Positions 32,531 to 37,034 of a stretch of DNA of 64,000 nt are shown piece by piece (the stretch's first letter is position 1; each line of letters opens with the position of its first letter). The stretch comes from Prevotellaceae bacterium. Its GTDB lineage: Bacteria; Bacteroidota; Bacteroidia; Bacteroidales; Bacteroidaceae. The position numbers and the translations under genes are program-made. Below the pieces are notes generated by a model. That model made no database searches and was not told the origin of the DNA. It saw only the letters and a program-made list of their open reading frames with translations. Where the stretch lies: the NCBI GenBank assembly GCA_021204865.1, contig JAJPYQ010000041.1, positions 1-64,000 on the forward strand, given 5' to 3'.

Positions 32531-34027
32531 TTATCTTGAGGCAGGGCGGAACTTCAGCCAGTCGCGGCTGAAGCGCCCGTATGCGTTTAGCCCCGACGAG
32601 TAGCCGAACAGCACACGCCTCAGGCGGTAGCTGCGGTAGTGGGACAGCACGCCAAGGAAGGAATTCACCGATGCGTCCATCCGTGCGTAGTCTGTGTAGC
32701 GGTTTGCCTTCAGCTTCTGGCGGATGCGCCTCAGTGAGTCGTTCGAGATATAGGTGCGGAAGGGCTTAATGTACGCGCCGAGGAACTGCACCCCGTGCCG
32801 CGCGTCCGCTATGTGAAGCTTCCTTTTGTTCAGGTTCAGGCGCAGGTTCTCGCTTAGGAACTCGTCTATCCGCGGCACGAGAGAGCGCAGCCACTCCCTG
32901 CTCTGCGCCACCACGTAGCAGTCGTCCACGTATCGCCCATAGTGTCGGCAGCCCAAGGTGCGCTTCATGAACTGGTCGAAGGCGTTCATGTAGACGTTGC
33001 TGAACAGCTGCGACGACAGGTTGCCTATGGGCAGCCCGCAGCCCGCGGCGGAGTGGAATATGCTCTTGTCTTTGGGCAGCTGCTCCCAGTCCTCTGGTTT
33101 TCCCAGCAGGCGGCAGTTCTCGGTGGGGTCGGTGTTCACGATGCTCTCCAGCAGATAGTCAGCGAACTCCATGTCTATCATCTCTCCCCACCGCTTCCCC
33201 TCTTTGTCCGAGGCGTGGCAGCTCATCTTGCCAAGCGTGTCGCGGCACAGCCCCAGCAATACCCCCCTGTCTATGTGCATGAAGTAGCCGCTTATGTCGA
33301 GCTTCATCACGTAGGCAGGGCGTGTGTGGTTGGCAGACACGCTGCGTATGTGGTGCCTCAGCCGCTCTATGCCATAGTGTGTGCCTCGTCCTTTTATGCA
33401 GCTGTAGCAGTCCGCCACGAAAGTTCGCTCGAACAGGCGGTGCGTGTAGTTGTAGAAAAGGTGGTGCACTATGCGGTCGCGGAAGTCGGCTGCGAACACC
33501 TCCCGCATCTTCGGGTCGTGGATTACGAAGCAGGTGGAGGGCAGCGGGCGGTACGAGCGTGAGTACAGCTCGTTGCGGAGGGTCACGAGGTTGTCCTCCA
33601 GCCGGTATTCAAACGTCAGCTGGTACGTCCTGCCCCTTTTGTGCCTCCTTGCGTCCTTGTAGGCGCGGTAGAGGTCGACGAGCAGCTGCTCCCGTGTTAA
33701 CTTGAAAGGGCGGGCGGCGGAGGGAGGCGCGGATGGCGGTGTAAGTTCTGAAACGGCGCGGACGGAGAAGCCGTTGTTGCGGTTGTTGTTGTTCCGGTTG
33801 AAGTTGCCACTGTTGAAGTTGAGGTTGTACGCGTTCTGCGTATTGCTCTCGTTGGGTGTGGCACTCCAATAGTTGCCGTTCTCTCCAGCGTTGTTAAGCG
33901 ACGTCCCGTTACGCCAGCCAGCGGCGGGAACGCTTCTTAGGCGGCCATCTATACTGCAAGGCGGCGAAGGGCATTCTTCCTGCGATTTGCCGCCAGGCTC
34001 ACTCTTATTTACCATGTCTGTCTCCAT
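32531..34027 (-). CDS. Diversity-generating retroelement reverse transcriptase (ORF also spans the TR; true start uncertain)
   Basis: YVMKLDISGYFMHID, LPIGNLSSQLFSNVYMNAFD (DGR-type IGxxxSQ), YVDDCYVV, QFLGAYIKPF. Confidence 0.93.
   Translation of the reverse strand: METDMVNKSEPGGKSQEECPSPPCSIDGRLRSVPAAGWRNGTSLNNAGENGNYWSATPNESNTQNAYNLNFNSGNFNRNNNNRNNGFSVRAVSELTPPSAPPSAARPFKLTREQLLVDLYRAYKDARRHKRGRTYQLTFEYRLEDNLVTLRNELYSRSYRPLPSTCFVIHDPKMREVFAADFRDRIVHHLFYNYTHRLFERTFVADCYSCIKGRGTHYGIERLRHHIRSVSANHTRPAYVMKLDISGYFMHIDRGVLLGLCRDTLGKMSCHASDKEGKRWGEMIDMEFADYLLESIVNTDPTENCRLLGKPEDWEQLPKDKSIFHSAAGCGLPIGNLSSQLFSNVYMNAFDQFMKRTLGCRHYGRYVDDCYVVAQSREWLRSLVPRIDEFLSENLRLNLNKRKLHIADARHGVQFLGAYIKPFRTYISNDSLRRIRQKLKANRYTDYARMDASVNSFLGVLSHYRSYRLRRVLFGYSSGLNAYGRFSRDWLKFRPASR
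33746..33930 (-). repeat. DGR template repeat (TR), 185 bp
   Basis: Aligns without gaps to 35094..35278; 20 differences, all at T on the plus strand (A on the TR coding strand). Confidence 0.95.
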
Positions 34028-34104
34028 CTATGGTCAGGTCGCCTCTCTTTAAGCATTGAATTTACTATGCGCTCTGCCGGCAGCCTTGGCCGCCGGCATT
34101 CCGG

Positions 34105-34488
34105 CTATGTCGTCGGCGCCTCCTCCCCGCGCCCGCTGTTTTGCTTGTTTGTCACGCTCTTCTCCCACGCTGCCATCTGCCTCGACATGTCCTGCGTGCG
34201 CTCCGCCAGCTCGGTGTACTTCCCCTCCGAGATGTGGCGCATGTCGCACAGCAGCCGCACATACACCTGCGCCTCCAGCAGAGTCTCCCGCATACGTGTT
34301 ATTATCGGAGCCTTGTTCTTCGTGCGGTTGGCTCGGTATATCAGGATGATTATCTCCATCACCTTCGCCCTCAGGTCCGTGCCTATGGAGTAGCGGCAGT
34401 CCCGGGGCAGGTTGGGCAGCATCTTGCTCACCGACAGCAGCAGCGAGTAGGTTGCCTTGTAGATGGGCAGGTTTGTGTATATAGCCAT
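34105..34488 (-). CDS. avd: DGR accessory variability determinant-like four-helix bundle protein (Avd)
   Basis: 127 aa helical protein, YKATYSLLLSVSKMLPNLPRDCRYSIGTDLRAKVMEIIILIYRANRT, located between target and TR/RT. Confidence 0.87.
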   Translation of the reverse strand: MAIYTNLPIYKATYSLLLSVSKMLPNLPRDCRYSIGTDLRAKVMEIIILIYRANRTKNKAPIITRMRETLLEAQVYVRLLCDMRHISEGKYTELAERTQDMSRQMAAWEKSVTNKQNSGRGEEAPTT

Positions 34489-34494
34489 CTCGCC

Positions 34495-34983: not shown

Positions 34984-35002
34984 AAAATCTCAAAAAAATC
35001 GA

Positions 35003-35048
35003 CCCGCTTCGCGGGAATTCCAGCGTCGGGCTTTTAATGCCCGACGCT
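35003..35048 (-). other. Two hairpins downstream of the VR; the distal one looks like a terminator
   Basis: AGCGTCGGGC-ATTAAAA-GCCCGACGCT (10-bp perfect stem), then CCCGCGAAGCGGG-TCGATTTTTTT on the minus strand. Confidence 0.75.
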
Positions 35049-35090
35049 AATAAATCAAATGAATCAAATGAATCAAACACGCTTCGCTTT

Positions 35091-37034
35091 TCATTCTGAA
35101 ACGGCGCGGACGGAGAAGCCGCCGTCGCGGCGGCTGTCGTTCCGGCGGAAGTAGCCACTGCTGAAGTTGAGGTTGTACGCGTTCTGCGTACTGCTCTCGT
35201 CGGGTGCGGCACTCCAATAGTAGCCGCTCCCTCCAGCGTAGCAAAGCGACGTCCCGTTACGCCAGCCAGCGGCGGGAAGGAAGATGCTGTTCCCGTTCGG
35301 TCCCGTAACCTTGTAGCCCGCGTGTCCGCCCACAGTTGTCCACGTGCGCTGGCACTTGTTTATCAGTTCGTCTATCTCGTTCGCTGTGGGCAGCCTCCAC
35401 GTGCCGCCCCAGTTGGAGCACGCCGCGTCGTAGCTTGGGTCGCCCGCTATGCTGCCCATGCTCACATTATATGTCCTGCTGTTGTCCTCATCGTACGATG
35501 ACTTCGTGCTTGTCTCTCCCCAGGCATAGTAGTTGCCATACTCCGAAGGAGAAGAAGCCCCAACGTTGCAGGTTGCCCACTTCACGCTCAGCCCCAGGTC
35601 GACATACTCGTGCCCGTTGATGTAGCCGCTGGTTGGCTTGCTCGTCTGTGTTGCGGTGGTCGTTGTCTGCGTTGTCTGCGTTGTCTGCGTGGCTTGTGTG
35701 GTCGTCTGGGTCTGCTGCTCGCTCTGCGTCTGCTGCTGTGGGGCAGGGGCTGCGACCTCTTCCTCCCGCTTCTTCTCAGGCTCTTGCGTCTCCTCCTCAT
35801 CGGGCGCTATCACTTGGCTCGTGAGGCGGTCGGGGATTGCGACGGTGTCCACATACACCGTGTCCACCCTTGCAAGCTCCCCATCTGAGGGCTTGGGCTT
35901 GCGCAGCAGGACGGCAGCCGCCACTATGCCTATCGCCACAAGGCAAGCCACGGCTATCGTGACAGGGGAGAGGAGAGACTTCCCCTTGGGCTTGGGCGTA
36001 GGCTGCACTGGCTCCGCGGGCTTCGTCTCCACAGTCTCCGCCTCGGGCTCTGACACCACGCCCTCAGGAATATCGCTCACCACCTCCGCCACTATAGGCT
36101 CGTCACCGCCAAGCATGGTCTCCTCGCCCGTGGGGGCGTGACGGTTGAGCACCTCAAGCACCTCGGCCGCCGACTGCGGGCGGTCCACCATCATTGGAGC
36201 CATACACTTCTTAACCAGCTCGATAAGCCACTGGGAAACACCTTTGCCTTGCAGCTCGGCAGCGGGGAAGCCCTGGTTGAGGATGTGCGAGGCGTCTGGT
36301 GGACGCTGCCCGCTGAGCATCTTGAACATAGTGCCGCCCAAGGCATAGATGTCCATCGTCACGGGGAAGCCCTGCCCCTCCTGGTAGTCGCTCTGCTCGA
36401 GTGGCGCATAGCCCTTAGTGCCTTTTCCCACCATTGTGCTGCTCTCCGGCTCGCCGTTCTCGTCGTATTGCTTGGAGAGGCCGAAGTCAATCAGCACAGC
36501 GTGCCCGTCACGCAGCATGATGTTCAGCGGCTTGAGGTCGAGATGCAGCATGCCGTTCTTGTGCATGAACCCGAGGGCGGAGCATATCTCGCGGGCGTAC
36601 TTCACGCACTCCTCCTCCTGGAGCCTTCCCCTTTGGGCGATATGGTCGTCGAGGCTGCCGCCGCTGATGTAGTCCATGGCGTAGTAGACAGTGCCGTTTG
36701 TCTCGAACGCCTCAAGCACCTTCACTATGTTCGGGTGCCTCAGCCGTGATAGGTTGCGAGCCTCGCGGACGAACTTCTTGCGGTAGTCCACGAACAAGCC
36801 GTTCTCGCTTCCGCTGGTCACCGAGGTGCCAGTGCGGCCGTTGATGTCGCGCATGAAGAACTCCTTCACGGCGACGTTGAGATCCAGCTCCCCCAACGCT
36901 CCTGGCACACGCATCGTTGCGAGGTAGGTGATGCCGAACGAGCCCTGCCCCAGTGCCCTCACTATCTTGTACTGGTATGATTTTCCCTGAAGCACCGCCC
37001 CCTGAGGCAGCCCCTTGATAATGTTCTCGCTCAT
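35091..37034 (-). CDS. DGR target: transmembrane Ser/Thr protein kinase with C-terminal FISUMP/C-type-lectin-like variable domain
   Basis: GQGSFGITYLA, VAVKEFF, HLDLKPLNIML, DFGLSKQY; TM SPVTIAVACLVAIGIVAAAVLL; Thr/Gln linker; YVDLGLSVKWATCNVGA...FLPAAGWRNGTS...FSVRAVSE. Confidence 0.93.
   Translation of the reverse strand: MSENIIKGLPQGAVLQGKSYQYKIVRALGQGSFGITYLATMRVPGALGELDLNVAVKEFFMRDINGRTGTSVTSGSENGLFVDYRKKFVREARNLSRLRHPNIVKVLEAFETNGTVYYAMDYISGGSLDDHIAQRGRLQEEECVKYAREICSALGFMHKNGMLHLDLKPLNIMLRDGHAVLIDFGLSKQYDENGEPESSTMVGKGTKGYAPLEQSDYQEGQGFPVTMDIYALGGTMFKMLSGQRPPDASHILNQGFPAAELQGKGVSQWLIELVKKCMAPMMVDRPQSAAEVLEVLNRHAPTGEETMLGGDEPIVAEVVSDIPEGVVSEPEAETVETKPAEPVQPTPKPKGKSLLSPVTIAVACLVAIGIVAAAVLLRKPKPSDGELARVDTVYVDTVAIPDRLTSQVIAPDEEETQEPEKKREEEVAAPAPQQQTQSEQQTQTTTQATQTTQTTQTTTTATQTSKPTSGYINGHEYVDLGLSVKWATCNVGASSPSEYGNYYAWGETSTKSSYDEDNSRTYNVSMGSIAGDPSYDAACSNWGGTWRLPTANEIDELINKCQRTWTTVGGHAGYKVTGPNGNSIFLPAAGWRNGTSLCYAGGSGYYWSAAPDESSTQNAYNLNFSSGYFRRNDSRRDGGFSVRAVSE
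35094..35278 (-). repeat. DGR variable region (VR), 185 bp
   Basis: Near-identical to TR 33746..33930, with all differences at TR adenines; lies at the 3' end of the target gene. Confidence 0.95.

What the first reader, a model, noticed from the sequence alone, without database searches (positions are those of the whole stretch)
32531..37034. Complete diversity-generating retroelement in chromosomal context
On one strand, in order: a target gene with VR at its 3' end, a MutS-like accessory gene, an Avd-like gene, the TR, and an RT with the DGR-type IGNLSSQ motif and YVDD active site. The architecture is established for DGRs. This locus is not surrounded by phage structural genes, which suggests a cellular DGR.
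Basis: partly seen in the sequence, partly recalled or inferred. Interest (0 to 1): 0.95.

Follow-up and report, generated by a model that had tools for sequence, protein, structure and literature searches.

The report
Retroelement diversifying a receptor-like membrane kinase
A gut-type bacterium of the Bacteroidales carries, in its own chromosome, a known kind of mutation machine (a diversity-generating retroelement) that rewrites the outer, ligand-binding end of a membrane-spanning protein kinase and of several other genes scattered around the genome, so its main target looks like a signalling receptor rather than the adhesins or pilins usually reported for this group.

Summary
The finding is real. 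Target with VR, MutS-like gene, Avd, TR and RT lie on the minus strand as described. TR (33746-33930) and VR (35094-35278) are 185 bp each and differ at 20 positions, all at TR adenines (P = 1e-12). The RT branches inside the DGR clade (100/99 support). Neighbours are chromosomal genes (thrS-infC-rplT, 6S-like RNA, tRNA-Pro, a GH35 gene).

(1) The target is a Hanks-type Ser/Thr kinase with one transmembrane helix and a C-type-lectin-like domain carrying the VR, so the VR most likely lies outside the cytoplasm. (2) This is the genome's only detected RT and TR, yet five remote VRs match the TR; 120 of 150 differences over all six fall at TR adenines. One remote target is a second kinase of the same design; two are secreted lectin proteins beside Sel1-repeat genes; two look damaged. 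(3) The TR lies inside the RT reading frame, in frame.

DGRs, remote targets, MSL, TR-RT overlap and kinase targets (cyanobacteria, Thiohalocapsa) are all published. New here, as far as I could check, is the transmembrane receptor-kinase target in Bacteroidales and the mixed kinase/secreted target set. Verdict: new variant of a known kind.

The parts
35091..37034 (-). target gene, 647 aa: Hanks-type Ser/Thr kinase (aa 22-292), linker, one transmembrane helix (about aa 357-376), low-complexity stalk, C-type-lectin-like (Lcl_C/FISUMP) domain with the VR
   Evidence: Pfam Pkinase E 3.6e-39, Lcl_C 2.4e-07 (just under its cut-off); hydropathy and model helix; best fold match PpkA kinase; catalytic K57, D166, K168, N171, D183 present and invariant in kin
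35094..35278 (-). variable repeat (VR), last 61 codons of the target
   Evidence: 20/20 differences from the TR at TR adenines, P 1e-12
35014..35055 (-). inverted repeat / hairpin after the VR (AGCGTCGGGC...GCCCGACGCT), about 40 bp after the stop codon
   Evidence: DNA fold of the stretch: 10-bp stem, z -3.3; same element follows the VRs at C9:78243, C53 and C60
34495..34983 (-). MSL accessory gene, 162 aa, MutS domain I-like
   Evidence: MutS_I matched by 25 of 29 homologues (best E 4.8e-4); top seven fold matches are MutS (E 0.26 and above); conserved family of 143 homologues
34105..34488 (-). avd, 127 aa, accessory variability determinant
   Evidence: phrog_3206 Avd protein of DGR E 5e-22; NCBIfam DivGenRetAVD E 4e-14; Pfam bAvd E 1.7e-08
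33746..33930 (-). template repeat (TR), 18 AAC and 1 AAT codons in the VR frame
   Evidence: only perfect match in the genome
32531..34027 (-). reverse transcriptase ORF, 498 aa with the TR-encoded leader; RT domain from about 33700 down to 32531; LPIGNLSSQ, YVDD
   Evidence: phrog_1423 RT E 6e-91; RT 8ub7 E 2e-36, next best 6e-08; DGR clade; only RVT_1 match in the genome
31415..31488 (+). tRNA-Pro (TGG), chromosomal flank
37179..37372 (+). Bacteroidales-1 RNA (suggested 6S), chromosomal flank
   Evidence: Rfam RF01693, 137.7 bits

Best explanation
A complete, chromosomal, probably active diversity-generating retroelement. Inferred from the known mechanism: RNA covering avd-TR-RT is copied by the RT with Avd into cDNA with random bases opposite TR adenines, and this cDNA replaces VRs at the 3' ends of target genes, locally and in trans. 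Shown here: one TR and one RT in the available assembly, six VRs with adenine-specific differences. The main target and one remote target are transmembrane Ser/Thr kinases with the variable lectin-like domain on the far side of the membrane from the kinase; two other intact targets are predicted secreted lectin-like proteins beside Sel1-repeat genes. Most likely function (inferred): it varies what membrane receptor kinases and secreted binding proteins recognise outside the cytoplasm, while keeping the signalling end fixed.
For: TR/VR 20/20 at A, P 1e-12. Remote VRs: C9:78243 17/17 at A, C57 20/24, C9:68829 25/30, C53 21/27, C60 17/32, of which 12/14 in the 3' 138 nt. All six: 120/150 at A; first A of AAC/AAT codons changed in 67%, second 33%, other A 6%. 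RT in DGR clade 100/99; nearest solved RT 8ub7. Avd. One RVT_1 in the genome. Post-VR hairpin at four of six VRs. Kinase, TM helix, lectin domain. Near relative P0082: kinase 97% identical, VR 66%; differences fall in codons that carry TR A (19 of 31) and rarely elsewhere (2 of 30), P 7e-6.
Against: No reads or strain series were available, so ongoing mutagenesis was not observed. C57 and C9:68829 lack the shared hairpin and have 4-5 non-A differences, so they may be targets of a related or former TR. C53 is frameshifted in the VR and cut by the contig end; C9:68829 has lost its N-terminus. The model of the target is of low confidence overall (mean pLDDT 56), worst in the lectin part, and Lcl_C is below cut-off for the local target. 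Membrane orientation and any ligand are inferred. The assembly is 89% complete, so a second TR or RT could be missing.
Confidence: 0.8

Rival explanations
1. Same retroelement, but the kinase-lectin proteins act as antigen sensors of an anti-phage or conflict system: the variable domain detects phage or competitor molecules and the kinase triggers a defence response, perhaps with the nearby CHAT-TPR protein.
For: DGR targets in multicellular bacteria have been proposed as conflict sensors, some with protein kinase domains (PMC10907252; PMC7159879). The kinase domain matches PADLOC kinases PD-T4-6 and mad6. A TPR-CHAT protein lies at 24531-28937.
Against: PADLOC matches are to the kinase fold in general. 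The CHAT gene is separated by the GH35 gene and the tRNA and is not shown to be linked. No recognised defence operon surrounds the DGR.
Confidence: 0.25
2. Same retroelement, but VR variation serves adhesion or glycan binding like the Bacteroides tip pilins, and the kinase is incidental or regulates adhesin expression.
For: DGRs of Bacteroides diversify tip pilins (PMC12632263). Two intact remote targets are signal-peptide proteins with no kinase. Relatives' DGR targets are mostly secreted-looking proteins.
Against: Two of the four intact targets have an intact kinase motif set and a TM helix, an arrangement that suggests signalling across the membrane.
Confidence: 0.25
3. A decayed or dormant DGR: intact sequence, but no longer expressed or mutating.
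For: Two remote VRs are in damaged genes and four carry non-A differences. No expression data.
Against: Local and C9:78243 VRs have no non-A change in 185 nt; RT, Avd, TR and hairpin are intact.
Confidence: 0.12
4. The locus is part of a prophage or recent mobile island rather than a cellular DGR.
For: It sits next to a tRNA-Pro gene and a SocA-like gene; other same-genus genomes have different genes after rplT-6S. One 12-kb IMG/VR contig carries a 52% identical RT.
Against: No phage structural genes, integrase or att repeat in the flanks examined; housekeeping genes on one side; the RT's closest kin lie in cellular genomes of the same family.
Confidence: 0.07

Closest known systems
Cyanobacterial DGRs with kinase-CLec variable proteins (Vallota-Eastman 2020, PMC7517822)
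   Same: Ser/Thr kinase N-terminus grafted to a C-terminal CLec domain with the VR; local and remote targets; non-VR paralogues
   Different: Those variable proteins are mostly predicted cytosolic; here both kinase targets have one TM helix, the lectin domain is of the Lcl_C/FISUMP kind, the host is Bacteroidales and the accessory set includes MSL
Treponema denticola DGR with one TR and up to seven target genes (PMC4891356)
   Same: One TR and one RT serving several remote VRs; chromosomal; no phage genes; some leftover targets
   Different: Targets there are described as cell surface proteins with lipoboxes and the accessory is HRDC, not Avd plus MSL
Bordetella phage BPP-1 DGR (AY029185)
   Same: VR gene, Avd position, TR, RT in this order; A-specific changes; hairpin after the VR (PMC3240598)
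   Different: Phage tail target Mtd, single target, no MSL; RT about 29% identical
Bacteroides DGRs acting on type V tip pilins (cited in PMC12632263; original paper not held)
   Same: Bacteroidales cellular DGR
   Different: Target here is a kinase and secreted lectin proteins, not a pilin
Thiohalocapsa PB-PSB1 DGRs (PMC10907252)
   Same: CLec sensors on signalling or effector proteins, some with Pkinase; evidence for trans action
   Different: Nine DGRs in one genome with NACHT, vWA and TIR systems; none of these domains seen in the intact targets here

Membership tests
Diversity-generating retroelement | RT belongs to the DGR RT clade, with [IL]GN..SQ in place of QG..SP | tested here: met
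   DGR set against group II and retron RTs is one side of a branch, 100/99, with the window RT inside; LPIGNLSSQ, YVDD
Diversity-generating retroelement | TR and VR differ almost only at TR adenines | tested here: met
   20/20 local, P 1e-12; 120/150 over six VRs
Diversity-generating retroelement | Accessory protein (Avd, HRDC or MSL) | tested here: met
   Avd by three libraries; MSL-type gene as well
Diversity-generating retroelement | VR at the 3' end of a C-type-lectin-like domain | tested here: met
   Lcl_C over cut-off in three remote targets and just under it in both kinase targets
Diversity-generating retroelement | Hairpin/cruciform after the VR | tested here: met
   Present at the local VR and three remote VRs; absent in the same form at C57 and C9:68829
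Diversity-generating retroelement | RT-dependent mutagenic homing | not testable with these tools
   Needs cells or reads
MSL (MutS-like) DGR accessory | Homology to MutS domain I | tested here: inconclusive
   25/29 family members match MutS_I, best E 4.8e-4; no significant PDB profile hit; top seven fold matches are MutS at E 0.26 and above
Hanks-type transmembrane Ser/Thr kinase | Kinase domain with catalytic Lys, Asp, Asn and DFG motif | tested here: met
   Pfam E 3.6e-39; K57, D166, N171, D183-FG; HLD in place of HRD
Hanks-type transmembrane Ser/Thr kinase | Single TM helix between kinase and sensor | tested here: met
   Hydropathy 2.86 at 358-376; helix 357-376 in the model; also in the C57 kinase at 350
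Prophage-borne DGR | Phage structural or integration genes around the cassette | tested here: not met
   Flanks are chromosomal genes and RNAs

The most novel reading that the evidence does not exclude
A single template diversifies in trans a repertoire of membrane receptor kinases and secreted binding proteins, giving a Bacteroidales cell an anticipatory receptor repertoire: the sensor ends vary while signalling ends stay constant.
Probability: 0.35. Interest if true: 0.8.

Novelty: new variant of a known kind. Interest (0 to 1): 0.5.

Why it matters
DGR targets are mostly read as adhesins, pilins or phage tail proteins. A DGR whose VR sits on the outer domain of transmembrane Ser/Thr kinases links targeted hypermutation directly to signalling and gives a tractable question: does changing a few lectin residues change what the kinase senses? 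The one-TR, six-VR layout, with two VRs lacking the shared hairpin, also gives a natural test of which target features trans homing needs. Kinases of this family with different C-terminal sensor domains are found in the same bacterial family without a detected DGR, so the DGR may have been added to an existing receptor-kinase family.

Tried and rejected
A first RT tree used a wrong frame for the window RT and was discarded; the corrected tree is. A tRNA-mediated integration site was sought and not found. An independent kinase DGR in another member of the order was sought: G685 has a DGR-type RT and kinases with other C-terminal domains, but no TR-VR link between them. The MSL single sequence and its profile found no MutS in PDB sequences. 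I considered claiming that the in-frame TR-RT fusion is selected; relatives show it in several loci (G098, G172, G017, G360) but not in others (G024, G082, G192), and open-frame ascertainment makes a test unfair, so it is listed as an observation only. The Bacteroides pilin DGR paper was looked up and is not held.
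Full report
Observation. On the minus strand the order is target ORF with VR (35091-37034), MutS-like ORF (34495-34983), avd (34105-34488), TR (33746-33930) and RT (32531-34027). TR and VR are the largest direct repeat in the 10-kb region. They align over 185 nt without gaps and differ at 20 positions, all adenines in the TR (14 A>G, 4 A>T, 2 A>C); with 54 adenines in 185 positions the hypergeometric probability is 1.0e-12. The TR has 18 AAC and 1 AAT codons in the VR frame, the usual codon for maximal amino-acid diversity without stops (own knowledge).

Reverse transcriptase. The ORF matches PHROG 1423 reverse transcriptase at 6e-91, and of solved structures best the reverse transcriptase 8ub7 at 2e-36, with group II intron and DRT enzymes at 6e-08 or weaker. 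That 8ub7 is the BPP-1 DGR enzyme is from memory and was not checked here. In a tree with DGR RTs from phages (including BPP-1) and cells, group II intron RTs and retron RTs, the DGR set and the others separate at 100/99 support and the window RT lies inside the DGR set, next to G098, whose RT matches in length, identity and contig size a record titled uncultured Prevotellaceae bacterium. It is the only RVT_1 match in the held assembly (2.34 Mb, 96 contigs, 89% complete).

Accessory genes. Avd is supported by three libraries. The MutS-like protein is a member of a conserved family of about 162 aa (143 homologues); 25 of 29 members match MutS domain I weakly (best E 4.8e-4) and the seven best fold matches of its model (mean pLDDT 83.7) are MutS chains, though none reaches significance. 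MSL is a recognised DGR accessory with that Pfam attribution (PMC10053308). The GEFYRAY stretch resembles the MutS GDFYE mismatch motif, with the Phe (F27) kept and the Glu position held by an invariant Arg (R29) (the MutS motif is from memory, so this is an inference).

The target is a membrane kinase. Residues 22-292 are a protein kinase domain (E 3.6e-39), with P-loop GQGSFG, K57, HLDLKPLN (D166, N171) and DFG (D183); the catalytic residues are invariant in the aligned kin. One strongly hydrophobic segment lies at 358-376 and is a helix in the model. After a low-complexity stalk comes a lectin-like domain (Lcl_C, FISUMP) ending in the VR. Because the kinase needs ATP, the lectin end is inferred to be outside the cytoplasm. 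A near relative, P0082, has a kinase domain 97% identical but a VR only 66% identical; in the VR, residues differ at 19 of 31 codons with an A at position 1 or 2 in this TR and at 2 of 30 others (Fisher P 7e-6). P0082's own TR is not known.

One template, six targets. A search of the window's own genome with the TR found five more VRs. C9:78243 has 17 of 17 differences at adenines; C57 20/24; C9:68829 25/30; C53 21/27; C60 17/32. In C60 the first 47 nt hold 13 of the 15 non-A differences, while the last 138 nt hold 14 differences, 12 at A, which fits cDNA replacing only the 3' part of that VR. Over all six, 120 of 150 differences are at A. The C57 target (L013:2581-4266) is a second kinase-TM-lectin protein. 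C9:78243 and C60 targets are signal-peptide lectin proteins next to Sel1-repeat genes. C53 is cut by the contig end and has a 1-nt insertion in the VR; C9:68829 lies in a shortened ORF. A further kinase-lectin gene at C71 has no TM helix and no TR match, a non-variable paralogue. The sequence after the VR, with its 10-bp-stem hairpin, is shared by the local, C9:78243, C53 and C60 VRs, and at C9:78243 the shared stretch runs on into about 110 bp of the MSL gene, so that copy probably arose by duplication from a DGR cassette. C57 and C9:68829 lack this element. In BPP-1 such a hairpin strongly helps homing but is not strictly required (PMC3240598; PMC12875486).

Context. The cassette lies between a Bacteroidales-1 RNA beside rplT-infC-thrS and a tRNA-Pro beside a GH35 gene. 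The rplT-6S pair recurs in same-genus genomes with other genes beyond it. No att-like repeat of the tRNA was found, and no phage structural gene among the neighbours examined.

TR inside the RT frame. The RT ORF opens at ATG 34027, before the TR, runs through the TR in the VR frame and into the RT domain, with no ATG, GTG or TTG between TR and RT domain. The same in-frame layout appears in G098, G172, G017 and G360, not in G024, G082 or G192. TR overlap with the RT ORF is a described arrangement (DiGReF group 3; PMC3521204).

What is known. Kinase-CLec DGR targets are the commonest multidomain type in cyanobacteria, where most variable proteins are predicted cytosolic (PMC7517822), and a Pkinase domain appears among Thiohalocapsa target annotations (PMC10907252). 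Bacteroides DGRs are reported to act on tip pilins (PMC12632263). The main text of the large metagenome survey does not mention kinases and could not see remote targets (PMC8144416). Kinase-plus-Lcl_C proteins are frequent among the closest proteins in the public protein set, and same-family genomes without a detected DGR RT carry kinases with this or other C-terminal domains. So the machine is known; the transmembrane receptor-kinase target in Bacteroidales and the mixed target set are a new variant, as far as an open-licence library shows.

Shown versus inferred. Shown: the elements, adenine-specific differences at local and remote sites, RT placement, kinase motifs, hydrophobic helix. Inferred: current activity, trans homing, outward lectin domain, ligand sensing, role of MSL.

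Noticed in passing
window 33746-34027: TR is read in frame as the N-terminal part of the RT ORF, in the same frame as the VR; same layout in G098, G172, G017 and G360. If the RT starts at ATG 34027 the template is also a coding leader.
   Followed up: partly
L195:3609-5138 (G000 C71): Kinase-lectin paralogue with no TM helix and no match to the TR, a natural non-variable control.
   Followed up: partly
L011:17901-18648 (G000 C9): Remote target's downstream flank matches the DGR locus into the first ~110 bp of the MSL gene (86.6% identity): relic of a duplicated cassette.
   Followed up: partly
L011:9163-10209, L011:15959-17719, L015:7079-7759: Sel1-repeat genes next to three remote lectin-type VR genes; possible functional pairing.
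   Followed up: no
L196:4771-15355 (G053 C15), L197 (G041), L292 (G685): Arrays of related kinases with different C-terminal domains (lectin-like, FGE-sulfatase-like, others); no DGR RT detected in G053 and G041.
   Followed up: partly
L107:3525-7907 (metagenome contig): A distant DGR (RT 33% identical) whose two VRs lie in kinase-lectin genes, with 10/10 and 15/16 differences at A.
   Followed up: no
L296:3391-5670 (G360, same genus): Same-genus DGR with MSL, Avd and TR, but the RT ORF lacks its N-terminal part: deletion or assembly fault.
   Followed up: partly
L014:452-637 (G000 C53): Remote VR with a 1-nt insertion that shifts the frame; homing error or assembly error.
   Followed up: no
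window 24531-28937: Large TPR-CHAT (caspase-like peptidase family) protein 3.6 kb beyond the DGR's RT end.
   Followed up: no
window 31517-32435: SocA/Panacea-like gene followed by a small two-helix membrane protein with weak 4TM-effector similarity, directly beside the DGR.
   Followed up: no
window 37419-38092: HicA-like toxin gene with a probable HicB partner between the 6S-like RNA and rplT.
   Followed up: no
window 34495-34983: MSL family keeps the Phe of the MutS mismatch motif but has an invariant Arg (R29) where MutS is recalled to have Glu; may bind DNA or cDNA without mismatch choice.
   Followed up: no
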